Positions 4,927-29,753 of a DNA stretch of 64,000 bases are shown in pieces. The notes beneath the pieces are model-generated. The model was not told the DNA's origin and did not search any database. It worked only from the letters and a program-made list of their open reading frames with translations. Made by a program: the position numbers and the translations under genes. Source of the stretch: a virus. Position 1 is the first letter of the stretch; every line of letters begins with the position of its first letter. The stretch spans positions 1-64,000 of IMG/VR virus record IMGVR_UViG_3300050821_002494, one strand, 5' to 3'.

Positions 4927-6894
4927 TTACAACTTCACGAAGACGTTCATCACCAGCGTAGACTGCACGATGCCGAAGGAGGCGGTTGTGCCGGACGACG
5001 TACCGCCGAGAGTGTTGCCGCCGTTGCTGGTGATGGCGGCCGTCGAACCGGACGCGGTGACGCCGTCACCAATGCCAGCAGCAAATATGACGCCGCCGGG
5101 GGCCGCGAGGCCGACGCTGGCCGCCGTGACTGAACCACCGACGGTTACTGATACGCCGCCACTATTCACCGTGACTGTGCCGGACACAGTCGCAGAGCCG
5201 GAGTAAGTCGTGGAGGTAGTGCCATTATTAGACAGCTGTGCGCCCGGCGTCGAGCTAGCAAACAGAGACGACAGGCGGTTCGCGTTGGCAGACGTGCCGA
5301 GCGTGTCCATGCCCGCGAGCACGACGCCACGAAGATCGGGGACGGTGATGGTCTTGTTGGCAGCGAAGTCAGCGGCAGCCGACGCGCCTCGGCCGCCCGA
5401 TACGGTAGCCTGCGCGTTGGCGTAGTTGTTCCACAGCGCCGTGAATAGATTGACGGTGTCTGCGGCGGCGCGGAGTGTAGCGACAGATGCGGCGTTGCCG
5501 ATAGTCAGGCCGTTGGAGAGCACCCAGCCGGGCTTCGATGAAGCGATGGAGTACTTGATGTCGCCGGGCTGGTCGCCGCCGTTGATGGACGGCACTAGGC
5601 CGTTGGCATCGAGCTGCAGCATGAGGCTGGCGTCCGCGAGGCCGACGCCAGCAGACTTGTTAACCGGCGCGGAGGTGCCGAGTGCGGCCGTGGTGACGGT
5701 CGTCAGTCGGCCGAAGGCATCGACCGTGATGACCGGGACGGCGGCGTTTGAGCCATAGGTGCCGGCAGTAACACCCGGATTTGACAGCTCGACAGAGCCC
5801 GTCGTGGTAAGTGTGAATGGGCCACCAGCGAAATTGGCAGAGAAGTTGATCGAGGTGACGGTACCGACTGCGCCAGAGAACGCAACGGCGACGTTAGAGC
5901 CGTTGCTGCGTAGGATAGAGAACGAGCCCTGCGGCACCGATACGCCGGGGTCGCTGCCGTTGGTCTGGAAGCTCAGTGAGAAGGCGCCGCTCGTGTTGTT
6001 GCGCACGAACCAGTAGCCGACGCCTGTGCCGAGCTGAACCATCACGTTGTTGACGAGCAGGCCGGAGTAGTCCTGAACCTGCGCGGCGATCTGGATGGAC
6101 GACAGCGGGAACGGCGTCGCTGCACCAGTCATGTTGATGGTGGTTCCAGTCACGGTGCTGACCACCGCGCGGCCGTAGCCGAGAGACCAGAAGTTGGTGC
6201 CGTCACTGAAGATGACGGCGCTCTCGGTGGGGTTCAGTATCTTGGTGGCGTTGTTGTCGATGAGCGCGCCGCCCGACGGCGTCCACGTCAGCGTGCCGGT
6301 GCCCTGATTGATGACGTACACGAACCAGCCGTTGCCCAGCGTAGCTGGCGCAGCGGGCGTGAACACCGTGGCGCCACCCTCTTCGAGCAGCACCTTAGCT
6401 CGGTCGGCGGGGCCCGGCGAGTAGTTGGAGATCAGGGTGACCGTCTGTAGGCTCTGGTTGAGCTGAGTGACGATGGCTTGCAGGCCCGCGCCGGCAAGCG
6501 CGGCGGCGTTGGCGTTAGAGACACCCGCACCGAACTGAACGCCTGCCCAGACGCCGGCCGCCGAGGTGTTGATCAGCAGCCAGAAGTACCACGCCTGCCC
6601 AGATGCGACGGTGCCGATGACGTTGCCGGCGTTGTCGGTGACCATGTAGGTATTGGCTCCGGTGTTACGGAAGAGAACGTCCTGACCCACTGAGACCTGT
6701 GTGGCGTCGGGCAACGCGACCTGCAGGTTGGTCGACTGCGCGAAGACGTCAATCTTCGATGCGGCGGGGTTGGAGCCCGGCGGCGCATTCATCGGCCACG
6801 TCAACGCGAGGTTGGCGTTGATGGTGTAGCTAACGTAGCTCAGCTGAGCGGGATCGATGGTCAAGCCACCGAAGAGTTCATTAAAGTTGGTCAT
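4927..6894 (-). CDS. Tail fibre / collar-domain protein
   Basis: 655 aa. The N-terminal 150 residues are a beta-rich attachment-like region. The middle is Thr/Ser/Gly/Asn-rich, including the fibre motif VITVDAFGRLTTVTT. The C-terminal part has GDIKYSIASSKPGWVLSNG and TITVPDLRGVVLAGMD, typical of a phage tail-collar domain, ending in a Gly/Thr-rich tip. It is likely the receptor-binding fibre. Its ATG overlaps the preceding stop (TAATG). Confidence 0.7.
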   Translation of the reverse strand: MTNFNELFGGLTIDPAQLSYVSYTINANLALTWPMNAPPGSNPAASKIDVFAQSTNLQVALPDATQVSVGQDVLFRNTGANTYMVTDNAGNVIGTVASGQAWYFWLLINTSAAGVWAGVQFGAGVSNANAAALAGAGLQAIVTQLNQSLQTVTLISNYSPGPADRAKVLLEEGGATVFTPAAPATLGNGWFVYVINQGTGTLTWTPSGGALIDNNATKILNPTESAVIFSDGTNFWSLGYGRAVVSTVTGTTINMTGAATPFPLSSIQIAAQVQDYSGLLVNNVMVQLGTGVGYWFVRNNTSGAFSLSFQTNGSDPGVSVPQGSFSILRSNGSNVAVAFSGAVGTVTSINFSANFAGGPFTLTTTGSVELSNPGVTAGTYGSNAAVPVITVDAFGRLTTVTTAALGTSAPVNKSAGVGLADASLMLQLDANGLVPSINGGDQPGDIKYSIASSKPGWVLSNGLTIGNAASVATLRAAADTVNLFTALWNNYANAQATVSGGRGASAAADFAANKTITVPDLRGVVLAGMDTLGTSANANRLSSLFASSTPGAQLSNNGTTSTTYSGSATVSGTVTVNSGGVSVTVGGSVTAASVGLAAPGGVIFAAGIGDGVTASGSTAAITSNGGNTLGGTSSGTTASFGIVQSTLVMNVFVKL

Positions 6895-7565
6895 TACTGG
6901 CTCGTCCTAGTCTGCGTCCGGTCGACGATCTTCGCGATCTCCTCGGCGTTGAGTGCATTCAGCTCCTGATCGAGCAGGAACTTCCACGTCGGGATACGAC
7001 TGTCGTCCTTCAAGAACGGTGCGAGATAGAGGAGGCACTGGAAGAGCAGCGCGTTGGGGATGAAGTCGGTGAGGTAGTTCGTCTGCACGCTCGCAGACAG
7101 CACGTTGGGGAGACGATAGCACGTCAGCTCGAAGGGGTAGGCTTGGTCCGGGGTCTGAGCGACGAGGAAGTTGTTGAGGTCGTAGTCGGTATAGAGCGTC
7201 GGCAGACCTACGACGGAGACGTCAGGATAGACCTGATTGATCAGCTCGAAGGAGCGCATGCGCAGGAGGTTGCGCACCGGGAATGTGCCGGTGCTAGGCT
7301 GCGTGGTGTAGTTGGAACGAACGACGAAGGTGATGGTGTTGCGCCAGCCCGTCGGCTTGACCAGCGTGCGATTGTTAGGCGTCAGCTGACCGACAACGAC
7401 GTCGCGGTAGCCCTGTATCTTCAGGCGATTGGCGAGCGAGAGCTGCGCCTGCGTGATGATCTGCGGGATTTGCTGCGCCAAGATCGTGTTGCTGACTGAG
7501 GACTGCTCGGAGTACTGCTGCAAGTCCTGAACCAGCGAACTGTAGGTCATACCATTCGCGGTCAT
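6894..7565 (-). CDS. Head-tail adaptor / tail tubular A-like protein
   Basis: 223 aa. Key stretches are PTLYTDYDLNNFLVAQTPDQ, AYPFELTCYRLP and FLKDDSRIPTWKFLLDQEL. They match the pattern of T7 gp11-type adaptor proteins (about 200 aa), which form the ring below the portal. Its place beside the fibre and nozzle genes fits. The start chosen gives MTANGM; MTYSSL six codons later is an alternative. Confidence 0.65.
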   Translation of the reverse strand: MTANGMTYSSLVQDLQQYSEQSSVSNTILAQQIPQIITQAQLSLANRLKIQGYRDVVVGQLTPNNRTLVKPTGWRNTITFVVRSNYTTQPSTGTFPVRNLLRMRSFELINQVYPDVSVVGLPTLYTDYDLNNFLVAQTPDQAYPFELTCYRLPNVLSASVQTNYLTDFIPNALLFQCLLYLAPFLKDDSRIPTWKFLLDQELNALNAEEIAKIVDRTQTRTSQ

Positions 7566-7567
7566 GT

Positions 7568-7924
7568 CTAGCTCGGTGGATCGTCAGGAGGGAAGGGCTC
7601 GCTCGGATCAGGCGTCACCAGCCAGTCGGGCTCGGGTACGAGGCCGTCATTGAGCGGAGTGTCGGGTCGCACGAACGGGAGGTTTATGACGTCGGCCTGA
7701 CGCGCAGGCATGCGATAGGGATCGAAGTCGTCGCGGTCGGCCTCGCACACCATCAGGCCCGGTATGTTGGGGTCCGGCTTCAGCATATTCAGCGGGAACT
7801 TAAAGCTGCAGCGGCCACAGATACCGATGCCCAGCGTCTGGTTCCCAGTCGTATCGAGGAAGCGTCCACTCGGGCGATCAGTGCGGCCGCCGCCGTGGGG
7901 CTTAGAGGTCCAGTCATTAACCAT
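7568..7924 (-). CDS. Conserved phage protein with CxxC...C metal-site pattern
   Basis: 118 aa. It has IGICGRCSFKFP, then PGLMVCEADRDDFDPYRMP and VRPDTPLNDG. Two close cysteines and a third 24 residues on suggest a small metal knuckle. The C-terminus is Pro/Asp-rich. Small proteins of this shape sit between adaptor genes in related podoviruses. The role is unknown, perhaps virion assembly. Confidence 0.6.
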   Translation of the reverse strand: MVNDWTSKPHGGGRTDRPSGRFLDTTGNQTLGIGICGRCSFKFPLNMLKPDPNIPGLMVCEADRDDFDPYRMPARQADVINLPFVRPDTPLNDGLVPEPDWLVTPDPSEPFPPDDPPS

Positions 7925-7932
7925 AGCAATTC

Positions 7933-9006
7933 CTATGCGGTGTAGTAGCGAACACCGAGATCGTAATTTACCGGCGCGATGTCTCGCTCCTCACTCTCAG
8001 CCAACCATACGGCCTCCTTCTCTTCGTTGACCAGCGTCTCGTAGCGCGAGAAGTCGGCCTCCTTGGGGAGGGAGCGGCATAGGCGCCGCGCAAGCATCGC
8101 AGTCAGGGCGTCGAACCAGCGCTGAGGCACCGGCAGGCCCTGCGTAAGCTGCGTCACCTGATCGAGGTACTCCGTAGTCCACACCACGAGCGTATCATAT
8201 CTCGCGGTCATGTCGGGAGTGGGCCACACGTAGAGCACGCTCGCTGAGATGTTGCGCTGCTGGTAGTAGTTGACTACCTGACCCGTCGCGAACTTGTTGG
8301 GCATGTTGCTGTAGTCGTCGAGGTTCCACGAGCCGAGGTAGATTTCATTGGGGTTGTTGCCGAAGAACAGCTCCTCGACCGAGAACGGCACGGTGCCGGA
8401 GGAGCGGACGCGCCAATAGAGCGCGCCAGACACCGGAGTACCTTGCATATCGAACCACTCCCACTCGCCTGCCTGATCAAAAGTGACAGTAGCTGAGGAG
8501 ACGGTCGTCCATGTGATGTTGTCATTGGAGTACTCGAAGAAGACGCCGAAGGAGCCGGCGCCGCCAGAGAGGATGCCTATCTGGGTGCAGACGGTAGCGG
8601 TCGCGCACTGGATGCCAATCGCGCCGTTGGGTGCCGTCTGAGTGCAGATGGTGGCGAAGTTGTCGTCAGTCGCGTTCGCGGCGACGCCGCCGCTGTCAGA
8701 GAAGGCGGTGCCGGCAATGCGGCTGAGAGAACGACGATTGAGCGTGGTGACGAGATTGGTTCCGGCCGGCAGCTGTATCTGATTGACCATCAGGTAGCAC
8801 GGCAGGATCAGCTGCTGCCGCTTCCACAGCTGGATGCCACGGTTCAGCAGCTGCGTCAGCGTTAGGTTGAGCTGATCGAGGAACTTGAAGACGACCTCGC
8901 CCGTGATCTTCTCGGGCGAGATGCCGGCGCGGCCACAGGCCTCCTCAAGTAGATTGAGTGCGGTGTAGGGGAGCAGAGCCCCGGTATTCGATCCTGAGAG
9001 CGACAT
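7933..9006 (-). CDS. Adaptor-like virion protein with an inserted beta-sandwich domain
   Basis: 357 aa. Residues 1-85 are helical and then reach QLPAGTNLVTTL. Residues about 90-235 look like an inserted carbohydrate-binding or discoidin-like sandwich (ATDDNFATICTQ, WTTVSSATVTF, YWRVRSSGTVPFSVEELFFG). The adaptor-like part resumes with NKFATGQVVNYYQQ, LVVWTTEYLDQV and VPQRWFDALTAMLARRLC. Strong GGGAGGGG ribosome site. It is likely part of the portal-tail connector, with the insert exposed. Confidence 0.6.
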   Translation of the reverse strand: MSLSGSNTGALLPYTALNLLEEACGRAGISPEKITGEVVFKFLDQLNLTLTQLLNRGIQLWKRQQLILPCYLMVNQIQLPAGTNLVTTLNRRSLSRIAGTAFSDSGGVAANATDDNFATICTQTAPNGAIGIQCATATVCTQIGILSGGAGSFGVFFEYSNDNITWTTVSSATVTFDQAGEWEWFDMQGTPVSGALYWRVRSSGTVPFSVEELFFGNNPNEIYLGSWNLDDYSNMPNKFATGQVVNYYQQRNISASVLYVWPTPDMTARYDTLVVWTTEYLDQVTQLTQGLPVPQRWFDALTAMLARRLCRSLPKEADFSRYETLVNEEKEAVWLAESEERDIAPVNYDLGVRYYTA

Positions 9007-12644: not shown

Positions 12645-13847
12645 CTACAGCTTGCCTTCGGCGCGGGCTTTCTTGAGGCCCTTCCGCCATGTGTTGATGT
12701 AGCCCTGCCGCTCCTTCAGCTGGTCCTCATTGAGGCCATCCTTCTCAAGCAAGCCGAGGGCGTCGAGAGTTTCCTTCGCCAGAGGCGGGAGGTCACGGTC
12801 GCCTGCGTTGTTGCCGCCACGATTGCCACCCGAGCCTCTGCGGCTGCGGGGAGGCAGGCCACCAGAGCGGCGCTGCGGCGCGACGCGGCGCGGTGCGGGC
12901 TCGTCGTTATCGTCATCGTTGTGGTCGTAACTCACTTCGGCACCCAATCCTCTAGCGCGCACGCGGCTCTCAAGCTCGACCCAGTAGCGCTTGGTGCGGG
13001 GGTTGTAGCCTTCATTTACCAGCGTGTCGTCGATGGCCTTGACCATCTGGCTGTCCTCGTCGGTGTTATCCTTCGGATCGAACCAGTCGTGGCGCTTCAT
13101 GAAGATGCGGCTATATCGCTCGGCGTCGGGATCGACGTCGACTACGCCTTGGCGCTGCTGGCGCTGTTGTGTCTGCTGGCCCTGTGGTACCTGCTGCGCG
13201 ACCACTTCGAGGCGACGACGCTCTGCCCCCAATAGTGCGAGGCGCGCGTTGGCCTCGTCGCGGAGCTTCAGGGCCTTGCGCATCAATGCGCCGTTCTGCT
13301 CCGTCATAGCGCGCTCTACGGCACCATCGATGGTCTCAAGCTGGCCTTGGATGCCTGCGATCTGGGCGTCGATGTCTCCGGCATGGAGGCCAAGCTGGGC
13401 GCGACCCATGTCAGTGACTGCGCCCTCCAGCTGACGGATGCGTGCCTCCTGCTGCTGGATAACGGCCGCGCTTTGGCTGCGGGCCTCCCGGCGGGCGCGG
13501 TTGCGGCGCGCCCGGCGCGAGCCGCGCGGGGCGTCGTAGTCGTCGTCCTCGTCGTCATCATAAGCAACACGGGCCTCGATCTCGTCGTCTACGTCGCCGT
13601 CCTCGTCGTCGACCTTGCCGCCGCGAGCCTTATTGCGGCGAGCCTCGTCGCGGGCGGCCTGCTCGCGGGCGATGCGGTTGTCGTCGCCCTCATCGAAGTC
13701 GTCGTCATCCGTCAGGGTGTCGTCGTTCGAGAGGTCGGTGTCCTTGACCAATGTGCCGTCGGCGTTGAAGTCGCCAGCCTTCTTGGAGGTCTTGTCGTCT
13801 GTACCGAAGTCGTCGTCTTCGACTTCGCGTTCGCGCTGGCGGGCCAT
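12645..13847 (-). CDS. Scaffolding protein
   Basis: 400 aa. The N-terminal 130 residues are strongly acidic (DTLTDDDDFDEGDDNRIA). A coiled-coil follows at about 130-215 (QQEARIRQLEGAVTDMG, KALKLRDEANARLALLGAER). The C-terminus is basic (TWRKGLKKARAEGKL). This acidic-coil-basic order is the hallmark of phage scaffolds, whose basic tail contacts capsid. It lies two genes upstream of the capsid cluster. GGAGTAGCC precedes the ATG. Confidence 0.7.
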   Translation of the reverse strand: MARQREREVEDDDFGTDDKTSKKAGDFNADGTLVKDTDLSNDDTLTDDDDFDEGDDNRIAREQAARDEARRNKARGGKVDDEDGDVDDEIEARVAYDDDEDDDYDAPRGSRRARRNRARREARSQSAAVIQQQEARIRQLEGAVTDMGRAQLGLHAGDIDAQIAGIQGQLETIDGAVERAMTEQNGALMRKALKLRDEANARLALLGAERRRLEVVAQQVPQGQQTQQRQQRQGVVDVDPDAERYSRIFMKRHDWFDPKDNTDEDSQMVKAIDDTLVNEGYNPRTKRYWVELESRVRARGLGAEVSYDHNDDDNDEPAPRRVAPQRRSGGLPPRSRRGSGGNRGGNNAGDRDLPPLAKETLDALGLLEKDGLNEDQLKERQGYINTWRKGLKKARAEGKL

Positions 13848-15235: not shown

Positions 15236-15544
15236 CTAGCTCCTGCCTCCGCGACACATCTTGGCGAAGTGCGCGTCACTCGAATTGAACCCGTTCTCGC
15301 CACGTGAGCGTGACATCTTGGCGTCGTCGTGATAGTGGGCTACCTTGCCGCCGCGCCGGAAGGCGGCACCGGGAACCTGCGTCTGGAGGCCCTGCATCGG
15401 GCCCGCGCCGCCGCCGGGAATGCCGGAGGGCTGGCCGAGCGCGCCTGCGCGAGCTGCGCCGGCCGGATGGGGCATCACGCCCTTGGACGCCAAGCCCATA
15501 TTGGGCGGACGACCTACGCGTGCGAAGACGTTTTTCCTAGCCAT
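15236..15544 (-). CDS. Small Gly/Pro-rich basic protein
   Basis: 102 aa. It has AGALGQPSGIPGGGAGPMQG, then AAFRRGGKVAHYHDDAKM and a CRGGRS tail. The RRGGKV element recalls the GG-linkers of the 1222-aa protein. TCAGGAG precedes the ATG and the late motif ATATGCAACGATAAATG lies a few bases further up. Unknown role in the head cluster. Confidence 0.55.
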   Translation of the reverse strand: MARKNVFARVGRPPNMGLASKGVMPHPAGAARAGALGQPSGIPGGGAGPMQGLQTQVPGAAFRRGGKVAHYHDDAKMSRSRGENGFNSSDAHFAKMCRGGRS

Positions 15545-15592: not shown

Positions 15593-18364
15593 CTACTTCG
15601 CGGGCTTGGGCTTGGGCTTCGCTTTCGCGGCCGCGACCTTGGCCTCGTTGTTCTTGTCGGCGATCTCCAGCTTCACGGCGTTGTCCTCGCGTGTCTGCTG
15701 GAGGTCGGCGGCCGTCGTGTGGGCGGCGATGGCCTGCTTGCTGCCTTCGGCATCGGCCGCAGTTGCGGCTTGCGTCTGCTGGCCATGGATGGCGACGTGG
15801 GCGTTGACCATCCCGGCCTCGGCTTCTGCGTCCGCATTCGACTGGTCGACGACGGCCTTACGCTCGGCCTCCTCCGATTTCTGCTGGAGTTCACCCTGCG
15901 CGATGCCGTCCTTGTGCTGCAGCTCGGCCTGCTTAAGCTCGGTCGTGTCGGCCTGATCCTTCGCAGCGAGGGCGTTCTTCTGCTGGCTGTCCTGCGACTT
16001 GTGCTGCAGGTCGGCCTGATCCTTCGCGGCCTTGGCCTTGTCGGCCTCGGTCTGGCGCTCGACGTCCTTCATCGCGACGATGGAGGGGTCCATCGGCTGC
16101 GGGGGCTGCAGCTGCTTCAGCAGCGCCTGTGCCTTCTGGATAGTCTGAAGGATGGGCGACAGCTCCTGCTTGGCGTGGTTCATCACGGCCGGAGTGAGAA
16201 TTGCCATAAGGCGGTCGAGCTGCACCTCAAGGCCGGAGACGGTCTCCAGCGCATCGACGGTTATGCGGGGGTCGTGGAGCTTCTGACGCAGGACTTCGTT
16301 CATCGAGAGCTTCATGGCGTTGTCATACCACAACGCTAGATGCTCCCCAAGGTGCGCGATGAGCGGCGGTAGCAGCTTCATGGCCACGATCTGATTGGAG
16401 CCGAAGATGGGGCTGTCGATGAATGCAGAGTGCTGCGCGAGGTGGGCCTCGTGGTCCTGACCCGGGTAGGCCTTGATCGGCAAACCCATCGCGGCGGCGA
16501 CGTTCTCGCTGGCGGCTGTCATCTGCGTAGGCTCGGGAGCGTCGGAGAGGAACTGCTCGGGGTCCGGCACCTTCGCGTTGCGCATCAGGAACAGCTCTAC
16601 CTCGCGGGCCTTGTAGAGCGGGATGCCGGCGGTGGTGTAGACCTGTGCGCGGTTGGCGACGAGCTGCGCACCCGCCATACGCTGCGCGTCTGTGAAGATG
16701 TTGGGGTCAGAGACCGGCACCACAGTCATCGGGCCCTTGAAGTCGTCCTTCGTGACGACAAGCTCGCCGAAGTCGTCGACGATCTGCTCGTCTTCGACTG
16801 TGTGCTGATTGATGTACCAGAGCTGATTGAGGAAGCGGCGCAGCGCGCGGTGCTGGCGGCCATAGATCGAGCCGAAGGTTGTGAGGCCCTGCTCGATCAT
16901 CATGTTGGCGGTGCCGACCGGCATCTCGCCATTCATCTTGTTGAACTCGTCGAAGGTGGTGCGGACGACGCCCTTGCCTGCGTCAACGAGGAAGCCCAGC
17001 AGCTGGAACAGGACCGTATTCGGCTCTGGGAACGGCAGCGGCATGTAGGTCTTGCGGATGTCGGGGTCCTGCGCGAGCGAGCCCTGAACCTCAGTAGTCT
17101 GGGCGGGGTTCACGCGGATATTCTGGCCGCCAACCGTCGTGCCGCCCTTGAGCTTCACACCCGTCTGCATGCAGTTGAGGAAGGCGGCGTCGAGTAGGGC
17201 GCGCAGCGCACCAGATGCGGCACCAGAGAGGCCGCCAATCATGCGGCCGAAGCCGATGGGGTAGCCGCCGCGCCACGGAATGAAGGGCCACTCGATCAGG
17301 AAGTCGAGGCGGAAGTAGTTGGGGTCGCCCTCCTTCCAGTTGCGGTAGATCGCGAGCACCTTCTGCGTCTGCTCGTCGATGGTCAGCAGGTACGGCAGCA
17401 CCTTGGTGTCCTCCTCGATGTCGCTCTCTGGATCGAGCGCCATGCGGGTGGAAATCTCGTAGACGGTGCGGTTCTCGTCGATGTTCTGGATCGGCTGGTT
17501 CTGACCGATGATGCGGTCGTTGGCGGTCTCGGCGTCCGTCAGCTCCAGCATGTCGTGCGACGTCTCGGGATTGAGCGCATCGAGCCAGAGGCCGCTCTCG
17601 ACGTTGTCGCGGAATGTGTGCTTGTCGACCAGCATCTCGTGGGTGATGCGGTTCTGCGTGTAGAAGTCTCCGTCACCCCACGGGCGGTGGACCTTATCGG
17701 AGAACACAACCTCAAGAGCGGGCTTGCCGTCGCCGACAACCATCTTGGTGTAGAAGGCGCCGGAGAGGGCCTCCTGCGGCAGGCCGACCTCGATCTCGTT
17801 GTAGGCCGACTGCATCTGCTGCGTCAGCTGCCAATTCATGTAGCGGGCGACGCGGTCACCCTGTGAGGTCTTGTCGTTGGTGTACTTGCCGACCACGACC
17901 GCCGACTTGACTGGACCGCCAGCCGGCAGCAGCTCGCGCACGACACGCGCCGAATAGTCGACGATGGCCTCGGTGAGCATGGGATGGACGGCGCGGGAGG
18001 CGCCGCTGAAGGGCGCGCCACCGGGCGCGTCGTCACCTAGCCCGGTGCGTCGAAGGGCGTCCTCGTAGTGCTTATCGGACTTCTTGTGGGCCTCGATGTC
18101 GATGTCGACCATATCGAGATAGTCCATCGCGATGGCGGTCAGGCGCTCTGGCGACAGGAACTCAGCGAGGTTCTCGGCGTGGTCGTCTTCTGCGGCGTCT
18201 TCGCTCTTGTTGGGCTCATCGACGATGGTCATCGAGCCGTCGTCGTTCAGCGTGAGCGTAGAGCCCTCTGGCTCGGCCGGCTTGATGCGGGAGGCGGGAT
18301 CGGAAAGTGTCTCGGCGTAGGGATCGGATGCGGTGGCGTCGCGGCCTTCACGAATATCTGACAT
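15593..18364 (-). CDS. Portal protein
   Basis: 923 aa, long for a portal. The core (about 40-690) has EAIVDYSARVVRELLPAGGP, GVVRTTFDEFNKMNGEMPVG, GRQHRALRRFLNQLWYI and MIEQGLTTFGSIYG, typical of large podovirus portals. Residues about 700-923 form a Gln/Ala/Lys-rich helical barrel-like tail (QPPQPMDPSIVAMKDVERQ, ending AAKAKPKPKPAK). The dodecamer would gate DNA and seat the terminase and adaptors. AAGG precedes the ATG at good spacing. Confidence 0.8.
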   Translation of the reverse strand: MSDIREGRDATASDPYAETLSDPASRIKPAEPEGSTLTLNDDGSMTIVDEPNKSEDAAEDDHAENLAEFLSPERLTAIAMDYLDMVDIDIEAHKKSDKHYEDALRRTGLGDDAPGGAPFSGASRAVHPMLTEAIVDYSARVVRELLPAGGPVKSAVVVGKYTNDKTSQGDRVARYMNWQLTQQMQSAYNEIEVGLPQEALSGAFYTKMVVGDGKPALEVVFSDKVHRPWGDGDFYTQNRITHEMLVDKHTFRDNVESGLWLDALNPETSHDMLELTDAETANDRIIGQNQPIQNIDENRTVYEISTRMALDPESDIEEDTKVLPYLLTIDEQTQKVLAIYRNWKEGDPNYFRLDFLIEWPFIPWRGGYPIGFGRMIGGLSGAASGALRALLDAAFLNCMQTGVKLKGGTTVGGQNIRVNPAQTTEVQGSLAQDPDIRKTYMPLPFPEPNTVLFQLLGFLVDAGKGVVRTTFDEFNKMNGEMPVGTANMMIEQGLTTFGSIYGRQHRALRRFLNQLWYINQHTVEDEQIVDDFGELVVTKDDFKGPMTVVPVSDPNIFTDAQRMAGAQLVANRAQVYTTAGIPLYKAREVELFLMRNAKVPDPEQFLSDAPEPTQMTAASENVAAAMGLPIKAYPGQDHEAHLAQHSAFIDSPIFGSNQIVAMKLLPPLIAHLGEHLALWYDNAMKLSMNEVLRQKLHDPRITVDALETVSGLEVQLDRLMAILTPAVMNHAKQELSPILQTIQKAQALLKQLQPPQPMDPSIVAMKDVERQTEADKAKAAKDQADLQHKSQDSQQKNALAAKDQADTTELKQAELQHKDGIAQGELQQKSEEAERKAVVDQSNADAEAEAGMVNAHVAIHGQQTQAATAADAEGSKQAIAAHTTAADLQQTREDNAVKLEIADKNNEAKVAAAKAKPKPKPAK

Positions 18365-18372
18365 GCGCTACC

Positions 18373-21300
18373 TTAAAACTGCGATAGGTGATGCAGATCG
18401 AGGTCGTCGTCGATCCTACTCTTCAATGGTACCACATTGCCGCCTCTTGCGTAGAATTGGCTCACGCGGTGCAGATCGAGGTCGCCATCAACCCGGCCGC
18501 CCTTGGCGAACGGGGGCTGCCACGAGCCGGCGCCGCCGATACGGCCCTGCAGCAGCAAGTCGCGGGCCTCCTCGGGGTGGATACCGAGCTTGTCGGCGGT
18601 GTCCTTCATGTAGTCCGAGATCATCTCCAGCTTCGAGGGCCCGATGTAGCGCACGCCCGTCTGTGGGCCGCCGAGGTTCCACAGCATCGCCTGCGCGTCG
18701 CGGGGTCGGAGGTCAGTCGCATCAGCGACGTGCTTGTTGAACCACGGCACGATGTCGCTGTACTCAGTCAGTGACGGTACTCCGTTGCGCACCGACTTCG
18801 TGGAGGCGGTGGCGACATCCGGGTAGCCGAGGATGCGATTGAAGTGGCTATCGGCCACAGGGCGCGCGGAGTAGGGGTCCCTCGGATCGGTCGCGGCGGC
18901 GTAGGTCGGTACCTTGTGGATACCCTCGCCCGGCCAAAGTCTGCCTGAAGTTTCGTTGTCCAGCAAACCCGGCACTTGAGCGCTCTCGTGATAACTGTGA
19001 CCCTTCAGGTCCCGCAAATCGTGCGGAAACCAGTCGCCGCGATCCTCGTCTTTAACACCGCCGTACTTTACGAAGTCTTCTAGGCGGCCCTCGTTGGCTA
19101 GCCAGTTAGCGTGGAAGCCGCGATTGATCTCTGTACGAGGGTCACTGCCGGCAGACATCACGGCCATTCGGTTGTTGAGATTACTCATGCCACGGTCGCC
19201 GAGACCAAGATCGTTCATGCGATCCCACAGCGGAGACATCTCGTACCAAGAACGAGTGCGAGCTAGCTCTGGGTCCTTCAATCCCTCACCAAGCATGTCG
19301 ACGAGACGTCCCGCGTTCTTGGGGAGCAGAACCCGGGGACTTGTCTTGGCCGTACCACTCAGATTGACGGGATGACGCGGCCCAAGTAAAGGTTGAATGC
19401 TATCGAGGTCGCGGTTGCCCTGCGCTAAGTCGTCTAGGCTCTCTCGGGTGTGGCCGAAGAGCTGATACATGGGGCCCTCTTTGCCGGGGTCCTCAACAAG
19501 ATGGCGCCGTGCCTCAGATGCAATAACGTCTGGGTCTTTGTAGATGCCGGGGAAGCTCTCACGCACGGGGTTCTTGAGGAAACGCTTCGCGAGCTTCAGC
19601 GCGACGTCGCCGCCTTCGCGGTAGCCGGGTCGTCGCAGAAAGTCGTCGGCGGTATCGTAGCCCATCGCCTTCGGATATTCTTTAAGCAAGTCCTGCAGAG
19701 GCACGCCACCAGAGGCCGTACCGGCTGGGTCCATAGATACATCGAGACCGAAGCGACGGGAGAGGGCGTCGTTTATCATGGCGGCGTAGCCGGAGTGGTC
19801 CGCCTCATTCATCCCGAGGGTGTTGTTGGCTTTCTGCATCAGGTCACGGCTCTCGCGAGTGGGTATATTGCGATTGACCCAATTTACGGCGCCACCTACG
19901 TCCGACTTATCGCCCTGCTGTTGCAGCAACACCCGCACGTCAGGCGAGCCGGCACCTTCAATCAGCGATGAGAACGAGGGGCCAAGTCGGCCTAGAAGCG
20001 ACAAGTCAGCCGGAGACGGATACACCATGCCGGGCGTGCCCGTCTCCTTCATAAACTTCGCGCCGGTCTTGGCGTTTATGTTGCGATTGTTCAAATGAGA
20101 CGCGATGGGCATATTAGAGATGACCGGATGCGGATGCGCGATGAAGAACGGCTTGCGCTGTGTCGCTAGGGCGATCAAAGTGGCGGCATCGTCGCCCTTA
20201 ATAGAGGTCTCGGTCTGTCGGCCCTTTACGAAGCCAACATTCTCTGGGTCGTAGTCTGGTGTGCCCCACGACGACGCCTCGCGCCCCGTCTTCTCTGCGT
20301 GAGCGCGAACCTTCGCGGCTGCGGCCTCACCAGCGGGGCCAAGCCTCTCACTTACCAAATTGCTCAGCCACTTTATTGGGCCGCCTGCAACCACGCCGCC
20401 GTCGGCGTAGCCGGGGCCGTAGGTTTCCGGGACGCGCAGTGGCTCGCCAGTGCCACCGACATCAATCGAGTTGAAATTGTTCAAATCGAAGATCGCCTTC
20501 TGATTAGCGGCGCGGCCGATGTGAGCTATTTCTTGTTCATCAGGACCAACCTTAGATACATCTAAATATACGTTGTGGCTCTCTGGATCATGCCACGCCC
20601 CCAAGTGATGTCCCGGATCGCGCAACAAATCGTAGTTGCCCATCTGATACTTCCACAACTCTTCGGCTGTAACTTTATCGGCGGGCAATATCTTACTGCG
20701 CTCTGGATAAGGCGAAACGGCGTAGCCACCAGACGGCTCATGCGGTTCATGGAATGGCTGATAGGTAAACCCGCCATCGGGTTTCTTGAGCCGGTCCACA
20801 AGCGCCTTAAATGCGGGCTTCACAGTTCGCTCTATCACCTTGCCACCATCGGCGTATGGCTCGCTGTAGATCGGACGTGGTAGACGGGGCTGGGTCTCCA
20901 TTTTACCGCTACTGGTGCTGAATGCCCCATAGCCTTCCGGCACAACTAGTTGGCCGGACCCGTGAGGGAAATACTTTTGCATCAACCAGTCAGTATGCTC
21001 TTCAGGGTCCATCGACTTCCAATCGAATGGACGTTGATTGGCACGCAGCTGCACCAAAGAGCGATCATCGCCCATGCGATCCATAGCCATCATGCGATGT
21101 CGGCCTTCGTGCTGGATCACATTCGTCAGATCATCGTTGGTGCGACCTATAGCCAACTCGGGCGCCGCATACATGCCCTTTGTGTCGAGCAGATCACGCA
21201 TTTTGTCTAGGTACCAATCCTGCGTCTGCTGATCTTTTGGCACGCGGCCCACACCCGGCACATTGTGAGCCCTCGGATATGGAGCACTGGCCGCTACATT

Positions 21301-22041
21301 AGGCGGAATTCGGTTAGCGTAGTCTTGAAAATCGGAGGGCGGCATGCTCACGAACAAGCTGTTATCACGAGGATTGAACATCGACTTCAGTCCCTCGGGA
21401 TGTATGCGTTCGAGGTTCGTCTCGTCGGCGGCACGCTCCATACGGGAGGCTTGGTAGTCGCCGAACTTGTTTGCGACAGAGCGGATAATCTTGGAGACCT
21501 TGCCGCCGTCGGCGTAGCCCTGTTCGCGCCAGCCGAACATGCGCTCGGCGGCCTCGGGGGTCTTCATCAGGCCGCGCACAAGGGGCGTGGCGGCGCCAGC
21601 GAGCAGCTTCTGGCCGCCCTCCATGCCGGGGATCATGTTGGCGGTGGTGCTGAGGGCGTCAGCAAATTGGCCGGGCAGGCCGTACTTGTCACCAAGCTCG
21701 TGATTGGGGGCCGCGAGGTCGGCGGCGGCGCGCGCAATCTTGTCGGCGTCGTAGATGTTGTTCTCGCCTTGACTGGCGGCACCTGCGGAGTTGTCGAGGC
21801 GGCTCAGCGCCTCCATGCCATAGCTGAGGGGATTGAAGCCGTGGACATCACGGAGGCGGTCCCACTCCTCGCTGCGCTCGGGGACGTGGGTGGCGTGGCG
21901 GCTCTCGCGCAGGGCGGCGCGTTCGGCGGGCGTGCGAGAGATGCGGCCCTCGGCATCGCCGGATCGCTGATCGATGGCGTCGTCGAGATGCTTGGCGTAG
22001 ATGCCGTGCAGCTGGGAGACATCAGGCAGGAGGTCAGACAT
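18373..22041 (-). CDS. Large multi-module protein with repeated GG-linkers (polyvalent-type)
   Basis: 1222 aa. Modules are separated by near-identical linkers: GYADGGKV (about 175), PYADGGKV (about 400), GYADGGVV, GYREGGDV and FAKGGRV/YARGGNV near the end. Module 1 has VIQHEGRHRMMAMDR, a ParB/polyvalent-type motif. Module 2 has HHLGAWHDPESHNVYLDVSK and a following ANQKAIFDL. Module 3 has KPFFIAHPHPVISNMP. The C-terminal module has YEMSPLWDRMNDLG and PWFNKHVADATDL. It ends in two DLDLH..SQF repeats. Encoded between terminase and portal, it is probably packaged and delivered with the DNA. No module has a proven activity here. Confidence 0.6.
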   Translation of the reverse strand: MSDLLPDVSQLHGIYAKHLDDAIDQRSGDAEGRISRTPAERAALRESRHATHVPERSEEWDRLRDVHGFNPLSYGMEALSRLDNSAGAASQGENNIYDADKIARAAADLAAPNHELGDKYGLPGQFADALSTTANMIPGMEGGQKLLAGAATPLVRGLMKTPEAAERMFGWREQGYADGGKVSKIIRSVANKFGDYQASRMERAADETNLERIHPEGLKSMFNPRDNSLFVSMPPSDFQDYANRIPPNVAASAPYPRAHNVPGVGRVPKDQQTQDWYLDKMRDLLDTKGMYAAPELAIGRTNDDLTNVIQHEGRHRMMAMDRMGDDRSLVQLRANQRPFDWKSMDPEEHTDWLMQKYFPHGSGQLVVPEGYGAFSTSSGKMETQPRLPRPIYSEPYADGGKVIERTVKPAFKALVDRLKKPDGGFTYQPFHEPHEPSGGYAVSPYPERSKILPADKVTAEELWKYQMGNYDLLRDPGHHLGAWHDPESHNVYLDVSKVGPDEQEIAHIGRAANQKAIFDLNNFNSIDVGGTGEPLRVPETYGPGYADGGVVAGGPIKWLSNLVSERLGPAGEAAAAKVRAHAEKTGREASSWGTPDYDPENVGFVKGRQTETSIKGDDAATLIALATQRKPFFIAHPHPVISNMPIASHLNNRNINAKTGAKFMKETGTPGMVYPSPADLSLLGRLGPSFSSLIEGAGSPDVRVLLQQQGDKSDVGGAVNWVNRNIPTRESRDLMQKANNTLGMNEADHSGYAAMINDALSRRFGLDVSMDPAGTASGGVPLQDLLKEYPKAMGYDTADDFLRRPGYREGGDVALKLAKRFLKNPVRESFPGIYKDPDVIASEARRHLVEDPGKEGPMYQLFGHTRESLDDLAQGNRDLDSIQPLLGPRHPVNLSGTAKTSPRVLLPKNAGRLVDMLGEGLKDPELARTRSWYEMSPLWDRMNDLGLGDRGMSNLNNRMAVMSAGSDPRTEINRGFHANWLANEGRLEDFVKYGGVKDEDRGDWFPHDLRDLKGHSYHESAQVPGLLDNETSGRLWPGEGIHKVPTYAAATDPRDPYSARPVADSHFNRILGYPDVATASTKSVRNGVPSLTEYSDIVPWFNKHVADATDLRPRDAQAMLWNLGGPQTGVRYIGPSKLEMISDYMKDTADKLGIHPEEARDLLLQGRIGGAGSWQPPFAKGGRVDGDLDLHRVSQFYARGGNVVPLKSRIDDDLDLHHLSQF

Positions 22042-22089: not shown

Positions 22090-22794
22090 TTAGGCCTTCG
22101 GAGCTATCTGCTTGATGTAGCGAGCGATGCCTTGGCCGGCAGCAATCATGGCCTCACGGCGCCGCTTGTCCTCGACTGCCTTAGCGAGGCGGTCGTAGAT
22201 TGTGAAGTCGTGGGCGTAGCTGGAGACGGCGGCTGCGATGGCCTCGCTGTCGTTGTAGCGCAGCGTCCCGGTCGTGTAGTCGTCAATGTGTGAGATCAGG
22301 CGGGACGGCTTGTCGAAGCCGACGCGGTCGGCGCAGAAGAACTCCCACACGAGGCGGCAGAGAGACTTCTTGCTGTCGTGAACGCCGCAGACCTTACCCA
22401 GCGACGCCATCGTCTCGATGCCGAAGGGCTGCGTGCGCTTCCAGTTGCGGTACGGCAGCGGCGCGAAGGGCTGCGTATCGCATCGCATGAACGTCAGCAG
22501 AGACTTGCCGAACGTGCCAGCCGGGAAGCCGTCGTCACAAATTGAAATCCAGTTGCGGCCAAGGATTTCCTTGGGCTCGGGCTGGAATATCATCTCTGCG
22601 CCCTTGTTGACGAACTCGACAGGGATTTGGTCTCGTCTGGCGATCTGCGAAACAATCCAAGCAGCAGTAAAGCCATCCATACTATCAGGATAAGATACGA
22701 GAAGGACGTCAGTCGGATTAGGCTCCACAGGACCCTGAAGACTAGGGCGCGGAGCAGGAGCGTCCGAAGTAAGCGCACTGTGGCGGTCCTCCAT
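22090..22794 (-). CDS. DHH-phosphoesterase-like protein, degenerate active site
   Basis: 234 aa. LVSYPDSMDGFTAAWIVSQI matches the N-terminal DHH-family pattern (H.n.PDGf.AAW). GVHDSKKSLCRLVWEFF stands where DHH-K-S is expected, and PSRLISHIDDYTTGTLRYND resembles the following I.D.D.W...DSE block. The key DHH triplet reads VHD, so metal catalysis may be lost or changed. The gene lies between TerL and the large module protein, where such an enzyme is not expected. The ATG has GGAGGAG upstream. Confidence 0.55.
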   Translation of the reverse strand: MEDRHSALTSDAPAPRPSLQGPVEPNPTDVLLVSYPDSMDGFTAAWIVSQIARRDQIPVEFVNKGAEMIFQPEPKEILGRNWISICDDGFPAGTFGKSLLTFMRCDTQPFAPLPYRNWKRTQPFGIETMASLGKVCGVHDSKKSLCRLVWEFFCADRVGFDKPSRLISHIDDYTTGTLRYNDSEAIAAAVSSYAHDFTIYDRLAKAVEDKRRREAMIAAGQGIARYIKQIAPKA

Positions 22795-23185: not shown

Positions 23186-24814
23186 CTAGCCGTATGGATT
23201 AGTCAATTCCTCGTCGTAGCGCGATAGGTCGCCGGGGATGTGGTCTTCTCCATCGATGAATTCCGGGTTGTCCCCCGTCGCCATGTTGAAGTGGACCTTC
23301 TGGCTGTCGGCGACGTGCATGCCCTCATAGCCGGCGGTCATCCAGTTGTCAGCGAAGAAGCGGGACGCCATCGACCAGCAGTCTACGTCATCGTCGTGCT
23401 CAGTCGTGCCGGGGCCGGAGTAGGTGCAGACCTCAGCGAGGCAGGGCTCGTACCACGACTTCGGATTGCCGGGGCCGCCGTGGCCGTGCTTGTCAGGCTT
23501 GGACATATCGCTCTCAAGTAGCCAGCAGCGGCCGCGTGTGCCTCTGAAGACGCCGTCGCGGTCTGGTCCACCGGAGGCGACGTGCGAGGAACCATGTAGA
23601 CGAGAGAGCTTGTCGGCCTTGCCGGGGTTGTAGGGGAAGCACTCGATGCCCTCGTTGGCGAGCATCTGACGCAAAGAGATGCCGGAGCCCTTGTCTTCCA
23701 CAATCAGGATGTCGGGACGCTTCTCTTGGTAGGCGGCGGAGAACGTCTCGCCCAAGATCGGGTTGCCGAACGACGGGAGGTCGCGGCTTCCATAGACGTG
23801 TTTAAGCTCCTGCTTGGCGCGCTTGATCAGCTCGGGCATGCCGACGTGGTCTTTCCAGTGCTGCAGCAGCATCATATTCCAGCGGCGGTCGTGACTGAAT
23901 ACGCCCCACACCTGACACGCCGTCGGATCAGCCTTAAATTCTTTTTTGTCGAATGTCTTCTCAGTCAGTGCGGTGTCCATCACGATCATGATGTAGTCGA
24001 ACCATGGGAGGGCCTTGTCATGCGGCCAGAGACGCAGCCAGCTGCGCTTGATGATCGCCGCCTCGCCGGGATCGAGCATCTCGCCGTAGATTTCTTGGCG
24101 GCCAATCTCGGTGCCTTCGTATTGCTGGATGTCGCGGAAGAAGTCTTCGGCGAGGTTCTCGCGGTTCTCATACGTCGAGCCGATTATCTCGATGTCGGCG
24201 CGCTTGATCAGCTTCGCCAGCCAGTCGAGCGGCTTCGGTGTAGTGGTGTAGAGCTTCTGCGGCTGCACGAGCGTGCCGTCGGCGCACTTGTAGGCGATGC
24301 GGGTGCTCATATCGATGTTGCTGAGGGTGTCCTTCGCCTTCTGCTTGCCGTTGGCGGCCCACGCCGCGATCTCGTCGCCCCACAGCATCGTACATTGCGG
24401 GCCGCGCAGTCGCTCGGGGCTCTGGGCGGAGAAGCCGCGCACGATGGAGCCGTTCCTGAATTTGATCACCGGGATGGCGGCAGACACGTTCACGCTCTCG
24501 ATCAGCTCGGGCGGGCAGACGGCAACGATGCCAGATATGCCGTTGAACATCGTGCCTGTTAAGTCGGCGTGCGATGGCGCGACGGCGTGGATGATGATGC
24601 CGGGATAGAGACCCGCCTGTCGGACGATCCAGTTGGCGCCGACCTCGGTCTTACCCCAGCCGCGACCGGCGCGTGCTATGGCTAGGTTCCAGCCATCAAT
24701 GGGCAGGACTTGCTTGTCTCGGGCCTTTGATAGCCACTTCTGCTCGCGATCTAGGAACGCCAGAGCGAGCGGGTCGGTCAGCTCACCAACCCGCCCAATT
24801 AGGTCATCGTGCAT
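23186..24814 (-). CDS. terL: Terminase large subunit
   Basis: 542 aa. Walker A is at residues 47-56 (ARAGRGWGKT). The Walker B-like stretch is CTMLWGDEIAAWAANGK. Further blocks are TPKPLDWLAKLIKRADIEII and the nuclease-domain acidic motifs IMIVMDTALTEK and ILIVEDKGSG. It drives DNA into the prohead through the portal and cuts the concatemer. The candidate small subunit is encoded about 1 kb upstream. The ATG is the only in-frame start after a stop. Confidence 0.85.
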   Translation of the reverse strand: MHDDLIGRVGELTDPLALAFLDREQKWLSKARDKQVLPIDGWNLAIARAGRGWGKTEVGANWIVRQAGLYPGIIIHAVAPSHADLTGTMFNGISGIVAVCPPELIESVNVSAAIPVIKFRNGSIVRGFSAQSPERLRGPQCTMLWGDEIAAWAANGKQKAKDTLSNIDMSTRIAYKCADGTLVQPQKLYTTTPKPLDWLAKLIKRADIEIIGSTYENRENLAEDFFRDIQQYEGTEIGRQEIYGEMLDPGEAAIIKRSWLRLWPHDKALPWFDYIMIVMDTALTEKTFDKKEFKADPTACQVWGVFSHDRRWNMMLLQHWKDHVGMPELIKRAKQELKHVYGSRDLPSFGNPILGETFSAAYQEKRPDILIVEDKGSGISLRQMLANEGIECFPYNPGKADKLSRLHGSSHVASGGPDRDGVFRGTRGRCWLLESDMSKPDKHGHGGPGNPKSWYEPCLAEVCTYSGPGTTEHDDDVDCWSMASRFFADNWMTAGYEGMHVADSQKVHFNMATGDNPEFIDGEDHIPGDLSRYDEELTNPYG

Positions 24815-29096: not shown

Positions 29097-29753
29097 TCAG
29101 CTCCTCTTCAACATTGAACGGATGGCAGACGGGCCGTAGGCCTTGCCGGAGGCGGTGACGTAGCCGTCGGTCGCAAGAATGTCAGCGACCGCGCGAAGTG
29201 ACAACAGGCCCGTCTTGTACAGACGCTGCGCCATCGCGGCGGCGGGGTCAGGTATCGTAGGCTTGCGGCCCTCGCATCGGCCGGTGGCGGCGCGCACGGC
29301 GTCGCGGGCGTGCTTCAGCTTGGCTACTAGGGCAGCCTTCTCGAATTGTGAGACGGCGCCCAAGATTTGCCGCACCAGCTCGGCGGTCGGCGAGGGGTCG
29401 GTGAAGTACGTCGGGGCGTCGACCGGGATCAGCTCGATGCCGCGCGCCTTGAGCATCGCGTGCCCGGCCAGCTGTACCGCTAGGTCGCGCGCGAAGCGGG
29501 AGGCATTCTCGACGAGGATGACCTTGACGCCGTGGGCTTCGACGTACTCCAGCATCTTCGCGAAATCTGGTCGCGTGTCGACCGGGTCCGCGCCAGAGAC
29601 GGCGGCGTCGTAGAAGCTGCACTCGATAGAGTAATCAGCGCCGGGGGCACCAGCATAAGCCCAGACGGCTTCCTTCTGTCGCCCCATGCTGTCGCCACCG
29701 ACGTTGGTGGCCGAGCTGGTGCGGTAGTAGGCGACTGCGGGGGTCACGACCAT
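29097..29753 (-). CDS. Serine recombinase (resolvase/invertase family)
   Basis: 218 aa, the usual size of small serine recombinases. AYYRTSS holds the likely catalytic serine (S13). VENASRFARDLAVQLAGHAM and SQFEKAALVAKLKHARDAV match the E-helix and following residues. The C-terminal 45 residues form the expected HTH (SLRAVADILATDGYVTASGK). It could do site-specific inversion, resolution or integration. No att site or invertible segment was found. Confidence 0.75.
   Translation of the reverse strand: MVVTPAVAYYRTSSATNVGGDSMGRQKEAVWAYAGAPGADYSIECSFYDAAVSGADPVDTRPDFAKMLEYVEAHGVKVILVENASRFARDLAVQLAGHAMLKARGIELIPVDAPTYFTDPSPTAELVRQILGAVSQFEKAALVAKLKHARDAVRAATGRCEGRKPTIPDPAAAMAQRLYKTGLLSLRAVADILATDGYVTASGKAYGPSAIRSMLKRS

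What the first reader, a model, noticed from the sequence alone, without database searches (positions are those of the whole stretch)
18373..22041. 1222-aa multi-module protein with repeated ADGGKV-type linkers, encoded beside portal
At least five linkers of the form (Y/F)(A/R)(D/E/K)GG(K/V/D/R/N)V divide the protein into unlike modules, among them a HEGRHR-type module, a LGAW..YLDVS module and a FFIAHPHP module. It ends with two DLDLH..SQF repeats. The regular linkers suggest cut or hinge sites and a string of effectors that travel with the DNA. Polyvalent phage proteins are known, but this set of modules is not one I recognise as a whole.
Basis: partly seen in the sequence, partly recalled or inferred. 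Interest (0 to 1): 0.76.

Follow-up and report, generated by a model that had tools for sequence, protein, structure and literature searches.

The report
Plug-in effector protein beside phage portal
An uncultured phage carries, between its DNA-packaging motor gene and its portal gene, one long protein built from interchangeable enzyme-like blocks joined by the same short linker, and related phages gain or lose whole blocks exactly at that linker.

Summary
The 1222-aa ORF (minus strand) has six [YF][AR][DEKR]GGxV linkers (shuffles give 0.0014 on average), the named modules, and two DLDLHxxSQF tail repeats, and lies between terminase and portal. It is a phage polyvalent protein in the sense of Iyer et al. 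2017, but with blocks absent from Pfam: M1 probably ParB/sulfiredoxin-like, M3 a diverged JAMM/JAB-like metallopeptidase, M4 an HhH-GPD DNA-glycosylase-like fold (Z 10.1), M2 shared with Mycobacterium phages. The new part is the linker. In relatives the same modules are reordered, added or lost, and homology breakpoints fall on GGxV linkers (135 of 411 within 12 residues, 36 expected, p=2e-4). At DNA level two insertions/deletions sit on 16-nt and 45-nt linker repeats; a third joins at the GG. The motif also ends proteins, opens an unrelated PcfJ-type protein in the same slot, and occurs in small proteins near podovirus head genes. So the linkers are hinges and exchange joints; cleavage is unsupported. 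Packaging and injection with the DNA are likely by position and kinship but untested. A virion-docking role for the motif is the most novel reading not excluded.

The parts
18373..22041 (-). 1222-aa polyvalent protein, whole ORF
21517..22041 (-). N module, aa 1-175; homologue lies near the C-terminus of relatives L220, L217, L221
21496..21516 (-). linker 1 YADGGKV (aa 176-182)
20857..21495 (-). module M1, aa 183-395, HEGRHR; ParB/sulfiredoxin-like domain
20836..20856 (-). linker 2 YADGGKV (aa 396-402)
   Evidence: pLDDT < 50
20410..20835 (-). module M2, aa 403-544, LGAW..YLDVS; shared with phrog_3170 of Mycobacterium phages, function unknown
20389..20409 (-). linker 3 YADGGVV (aa 545-551)
19624..20388 (-). 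module M3, aa 552-806; JAMM/JAB-like: E588, H636-x-H638-P, S676-x-x-D679
19603..19623 (-). linker 4 YREGGDV (aa 807-813)
18511..19602 (-). module M4, aa 814-1177; HhH-GPD glycosylase-like all-helical fold, K1043, D1064-x-H1066-x-x-R1069
18490..18510 (-). linker 5 FAKGGRV (aa 1178-1184), first half of C-terminal doublet
18454..18483 (-). tail repeat DLDLHRVSQF (aa 1187-1196)
18433..18453 (-). linker 6 YARGGNV (aa 1197-1203), second half of C-terminal doublet
18376..18405 (-). tail repeat DLDLHHLSQF (aa 1213-1222)
15593..18364 (-). portal (head-to-tail connector), directly downstream
23186..24814 (-). terminase large subunit, upstream
22090..22794 (-). DHH phosphoesterase-like gene between terminase and this gene; gene of the same type in the same place in L001, L002, L004
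15341..15361 (-). FRRGGKV in a small ORF (15236..15544) just downstream of portal

Best explanation
It is a phage polyvalent protein: several unrelated effector domains on one chain, made with the head proteins, probably loaded into the head and injected with the DNA. The domains are independent plug-in cassettes. The GGxV linkers are flexible joints and at the same time the places where cassettes are swapped: a short in-frame repeat of DNA around every joint lets recombination insert, delete or reorder whole modules without breaking a fold. Shown here by comparison: the modules, the joints, and exchange at the joints. Inferred: virion loading and injection, and the activities of the modules (M1 ParB/sulfiredoxin-like NTP or DNA enzyme, M3 JAMM-like peptidase, M4 base-excision or base-modifying enzyme of the HhH-GPD fold), together acting on host or incoming DNA and proteins early in infection.
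For: Four IMG/VR relatives in the same slot carry the same modules in other orders and sets. BLASTP breakpoints across 14 such proteins: 135 of 411 within 12 aa of a linker, 36 expected from shifted linkers, p=2e-4. DNA level: L001 and L004 share nt 1-117 and then 405-866 vs 102-575, so a ~96-codon module is present or absent with a 16-nt overlap on the YAxGG codons; L003 joins L001's flanks at the GG of YADGG where L001 has the JAMM-like module; L004's extra module is flanked by a 45-nt direct repeat of which L003 has one copy. Third codon positions of the GG vary between copies, so the peptide rather than a fixed DNA site is conserved. ART-PolyVal at its cut-off in L190 and InPase in L237 on linker-bearing chains. 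The gene is next to portal in the window and in L002, L003, L004. Fold evidence: M1; M4; M3.
Against: No virion proteomics exists for this metagenomic phage. The window protein itself has no Pfam match and only one module (M2) matches a PHROG clearly. M1's Z (4.8) is low; M3 was modelled poorly (pLDDT 25-49) and its JAMM motif carries a long insert; M4 lacks the usual LPGVG hairpin, so activity is uncertain. Location beside portal does not prove packaging.
Confidence: 0.62

Rival explanations
1. The GGxV element is a virion-loading or docking peptide: each copy binds portal, capsid or scaffold, and any domain fused to it rides into the head. Module shuffling at the element follows because every cassette carries its own tag.
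For: The motif is placed N-terminal, internal and C-terminal, and on unrelated bodies: a C-terminal doublet with 18-21 residue spacing and VDDD(M/L)L-like sequence between the copies (window FAKGGRVDGDLDLHRVSQFYARGGNV; L218 YAAGGSVDDDMLGYHVMNYAMGGYV; L220; L001; L216), and an N-terminal version MADGGLVDINSLSVAAFAEGGEV on a PcfJ-type protein of phage DSL-LC04 in the same slot. Loci found by YADGGKV hold this podovirus-type portal/TerL/MCP in 36 of 119, by YAxGGxVDDD in 20 of 46, by the permuted YAGDGKV in 0 of 57; by sequence cluster 11 of 38 vs 0 of 25, p=0.002.
Against: No binding or virion data. One family of ~100-aa proteins supplies 42 of 119 YADGGKV sites. One cluster looks like tape-measure-type sequence (GPGTGTSDD). 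A TerL (L252) also ends with FREGGLV, and terminase is not a virion part.
Confidence: 0.3
2. The linkers are proteolytic cut sites; the chain is cleaved into free effectors before packaging or after injection, perhaps by the JAMM-like module itself, since JAMM enzymes act after Gly-Gly of ubiquitin-like proteins.
For: Gly-Gly at every joint; a JAMM-like module in the chain; the polyvalent DdrB protein of phage P1 is processed (PMC5512222).
Against: L003 and L004 keep the linkers but have no JAMM-like module. No prohead protease recognised among late genes scanned; the MCP matches only the capsid part of protease-capsid families. The residue before GG is D, E, K, R, A or G. The window JAMM motif has a long insert.
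Confidence: 0.12
3. The motif is a passive glycine-rich spacer, kept only because short repeats seed recombination.
For: Low pLDDT at the linker; exchange at repeats.
Against: The pattern is specific (aromatic, A/R, charged, GG, x, V), third codon positions vary while residues stay, and it is kept at chain ends where no exchange of modules is needed.
Confidence: 0.25

Closest known systems
Polyvalent proteins of phages and conjugative elements (Iyer et al. 2017, PMC5512222)
   Same: Many disparate domains on one chain, phage late genes with portal-terminase packaging, mosaic architectures, ART-PolyVal and InPase on linker-bearing relatives, ParB-like and JAB-clade (RadC) domains.
   Different: None of the window's modules matches a Pfam model of a polyvalent domain; a repeated signature linker and breakpoints at it are not described in the main text (0 occurrences of 'linker' or 'domain shuffling'); 'glycosylase' has 0 occurrences.
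Mycobacterium phage gp110-type protein, phrog_3170 (Bixzunavirus)
   Same: Contains homologues of module M2 and of module M5 found in L001/L003/L004.
   Different: 433 aa, annotated hypothetical, in a large phage of another group (Bixzunavirus); the other window modules are not matched there.
PcfJ-type 825-aa protein of phage DSL-LC04 (WJZ48068.1)
   Same: Same slot between terminase and portal; same GGxV doublet with similar spacing.
   Different: Unrelated body (PcfJ, PF14284) and motif at the N-terminus.
T4 capsid targeting sequence of internal proteins
   Same: Idea of a short peptide that loads injected proteins into the head.
   Different: T4's is N-terminal and removed by the prohead protease; here position varies and no cleavage is known (comparison from general knowledge; papers listed not read in full).

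Membership tests
Phage polyvalent protein | Two or more disparate globular domains on one chain | tested here: met
   N, M1, M2, M3, M4 with separate homologues in different orders
Phage polyvalent protein | Encoded in phage late genes with portal-terminase packaging | tested here: met
   TerL 23186-24814, portal 15593-18364
Phage polyvalent protein | Shares domains with the described polyvalent set | tested here: inconclusive
   Not in the window protein itself; ART-PolyVal or InPase on chains with the same linkers, the former also with M1 (L190)
Phage polyvalent protein | Packaged and delivered with DNA | not testable with these tools
   Needs virion proteomics
ParB/sulfiredoxin superfamily (M1) | Fold | tested here: inconclusive
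   AF2 pLDDT ~95; region 48-199 matched mainly Srx, ParB, Noc, Osa, SbnI, PadC, but Z 4.8 at best and Foldseek E about 0.7
ParB/sulfiredoxin superfamily (M1) | Conserved Arg in the nucleotide/active-site motif (GxHR / GERRxRA) | tested here: met
   H-E-G-R-H-R: H311, R314, H315, R316 invariant over 25 sequences
JAMM/JAB metallopeptidase (M3) | E...HxHx7SxxD | tested here: inconclusive
   Exact spacing in L214, L215, L217, L221 (HSHPTNTLSPSTND etc.); in the window E588, HPHP, SPAD present but with a long insert between
JAMM/JAB metallopeptidase (M3) | Pfam Prok-JAB above cut-off | tested here: not met
   Only sub-threshold hits in L214, L215, L221 (E 0.01-0.12), none for the window
HhH-GPD glycosylase superfamily (M4) | Fold | tested here: met
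   Top 11 VIA-align rows are all of this fold (Ogg2 3knt Z 10.1, rmsd 3.5 over 183; OGG1; MUTYH; AGOG; PUGT), next unrelated row Z 2.7; caution: helical models can give Z of this size by chance, and Foldseek itself was not significant
HhH-GPD glycosylase superfamily (M4) | Catalytic Asp in (V)DxHxxR | tested here: met
   D1064-x-H1066-x-x-R1069, at least 90% conserved; assignment by motif, not by superposition of residues
HhH-GPD glycosylase superfamily (M4) | LPGVG-type hairpin and Pfam PF00730 match | tested here: not met
   No such string in M4; no PF00730 match at E <= 10

The most novel reading that the evidence does not exclude
A general, position-independent virion-docking peptide ([YF]AxGGxV, often doubled around VDDDxL) used by a broad group of short-tailed phages to load interchangeable injected effectors into the head, with the same element doubling as the recombination joint that lets cassettes be swapped.
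Probability: 0.27. Interest if true: 0.85.

Novelty: new variant of a known kind. Interest (0 to 1): 0.6.

Why it matters
Polyvalent proteins are known to be mosaics, but how modules are exchanged in frame and how so many unlike domains are brought into a head is open. Here one short element marks the joints in proteins from many phages, and three DNA-level insertions/deletions pin the exchange to it. That gives a simple handle to find injected effectors in unannotated phages (look for chains cut by [YF]AxGGxV next to portal), adds three likely enzyme folds (JAMM-like, ParB/Srx-like, HhH-GPD-like) that profile libraries miss, and makes a docking-peptide hypothesis directly testable.

Tried and rejected
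Pfam, PHROG and PDB sequence searches of the whole protein and of modules: only phrog_3170 for M2. tblastn of M1, M3 (L001 copy) and M4 in 50,697 phage records up to E=1: no match. Mixed multi-module alignments for AF2 failed because MAFFT placed fragments on wrong modules, so two cleaner alignments were used. The M3 AF2 model is too poor to search. M2 has too few relatives and was modelled poorly. Lambda K as a JAB reference is interrupted by a stop upstream of the annotated start in this record, so the profile comparison was dropped. Site-specific recombination at a fixed DNA sequence is rejected: third codon positions of the linkers vary. JAMM self-cleavage as the reason for the linkers is disfavoured: linkers persist in relatives without the module.

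Full report
OBSERVATION. The ORF is on the minus strand at 18373..22041, 1222 aa. Six [YF][AR][DEKR]GGxV copies occur; shuffles of the same residues average 0.0014 with a maximum of 1. The window is part of a 69,246-bp virus record. The neighbours are terminase large subunit, a 120-aa ORF, a DHH phosphoesterase-like gene (phrog_4771), this gene, and then portal. Other late genes include an SU10-type adaptor and a Mu-gpT/Phage_capsid_4-type major capsid protein, so this is probably a short-tailed phage of the Pam1/HTVC023P-like kind (group name from annotation of relatives and general knowledge).

MODULES. Order in the window: N (1-175), M1 (183-395), M2 (403-544), M3 (552-806), M4 (814-1177), C-terminal tail. 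M1: 25 IMG/VR loci, sometimes two copies per chain. The AF2 model has pLDDT about 95; second-look alignments of its core return mainly sulfiredoxin, ParB, Noc, Osa, SbnI and PadC, though at low Z (4.8 and below). The BFVD viral library returns phage proteins named ParB/Sulfiredoxin lower down the list. H311, R314, H315 and R316 of HEGRHR are invariant. M2 matches the C-terminal part of phrog_3170 of Mycobacterium phages. M3: in relatives L214, L215, L217 and L221 the segment reads H-S-H-x7-S-x-x-D with an upstream invariant E, the JAMM signature; the window keeps E588, HPHP and S676xxD679 with a long insert. Pfam gives only sub-threshold Prok-JAB, and only for relatives. M4: all-helical; the eleven best VIA-align rows are all HhH-GPD glycosylases or the phage enzyme PUGT, which aligns with them, Z 10.1 to 4.2, then a drop to 2.7. 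The superfamily's (V)DxHxxR appears as VADSHFNR, at least 90% conserved. The hairpin LPGVG is missing and Pfam HhH-GPD does not match, so I call the fold likely and the activity open.

JOINTS. Relatives in the same slot have other sets and orders: L001/L002 (1475 aa) = extra N block, JAMM-like, ParB-like, VHDALGHF block (M5, also phrog_3170), HhH-like; L003 (1075 aa) lacks the JAMM-like block; L004 (1341 aa) has in its place a block that looks to me like an ADP-ribosyltransferase (by eye only; Pfam found nothing). The window's N module sits near the C-terminus of L220. Over 14 long proteins, BLASTP breakpoints fall within 12 aa of a linker 135 times of 411; shifting the linkers around each protein gives 36 on average (maximum 93 in 5,000), p=2e-4. 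At nucleotide level the joins are sharp. L001 nt 1-117 and 405-866 match L004 nt 1-117 and 102-575, so the two L001 stretches overlap by 16 nt in L004 exactly over the YAxGG codons. L001 ends at 866 and resumes at 1644 where L003 has 383 and 381, again at the GG. L004 and L003 differ by a module flanked by a 45-nt repeat coding for YADGGKVAKAIR-like sequence. This is the pattern expected of recombination between short direct repeats. The third codon positions of the Gly codons differ between copies, so there is no fixed DNA site.

THE MOTIF ELSEWHERE. YADGGKV-coding DNA was found in at least 120 IMG/VR stretches (limit reached) vs 57 for the permuted YAGDGKV; clustering reduces this to 38 vs 25 groups. 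Portal, TerL or MCP of this phage type lies in 36/119 motif loci, 20/46 YAxGGxVDDD loci and 0/57 control loci, or 11/38 vs 0/25 by cluster, p=0.002. The C-terminal part of window, L001-L004, L216, L218 and L220 carries a doublet with VDDD(M/L)L-like sequence between the copies, and DSL-LC04 carries a similar doublet at the N-terminus of a PcfJ-type protein in the same slot. This is what makes a docking role thinkable; it is not shown.

MECHANISM. Best reading: synthesis with the head genes, incorporation in or near the head beside portal (inferred), ejection with DNA (inferred), independent domains on flexible joints (AF2 pLDDT under 50 at the M1/M2 joint) acting early on host or phage DNA and proteins (inferred from folds). 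Cassettes turn over by recombination at the joints (shown by comparison). Cleavage is possible but nothing seen here favours it.

KNOWN OR NEW. The concept is that of polyvalent proteins (PMC5512222). Membership is supported by architecture and context; delivery is untested. What I did not find described in that paper: the repeated signature joint, exchange at it, and an HhH-GPD-like module. A literature search for ADGGKV gave only unrelated papers. Hence 'new variant of a known kind'.

Noticed in passing
window 22090-22794 (-): DHH phosphoesterase-like gene (phrog_4771, E 3e-9) between terminase and the polyvalent gene; a gene of the same type is in the same place in L001, L002 and L004. Could degrade cyclic or short nucleotides, a possible counter-defence enzyme.
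   Followed up: no
L252 reverse strand, ORF 6484-7965: A terminase large subunit whose own C-terminal tail reads MRFREGGLVSLEDDYQDG, i.e. carries the GGxV motif.
   Followed up: partly
L196 6525-8777: Terminase frame runs on into an M1-containing polyvalent chain (751 aa, open at the end), whereas the closely related L193 has a normal terminase stop; deletion or assembly error.
   Followed up: partly
L190 ORF 266-2941, aa 825-892: DUF6321 at the C-terminus right after FAKGGPV, on a chain that also has M1, ART-PolyVal and DUF6973.
   Followed up: no
L017, L021, L050 and about 40 similar loci: A family of ~100-aa phage proteins (RKARRDDTDFTQYADGGKV...), often 2.4-5 kb downstream of the major capsid gene; function unknown.
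   Followed up: partly
L001 11513-12271, L003 1303-2061, L004 8662-9420 (module M5): Block with VHDALGHFGPGNPF...GQNSWVNFGP...YADQKAGLLP, also in phrog_3170 and L218; may be a metal-binding enzyme; absent from the window.
   Followed up: no
window 29097-29753 (-): Serine recombinase (Resolvase PF00239, E 2e-22).
   Followed up: no
window 12645-13847 (-): Acidic 400-aa scaffold-like protein with KARGGKV in its N-terminal third.
   Followed up: no
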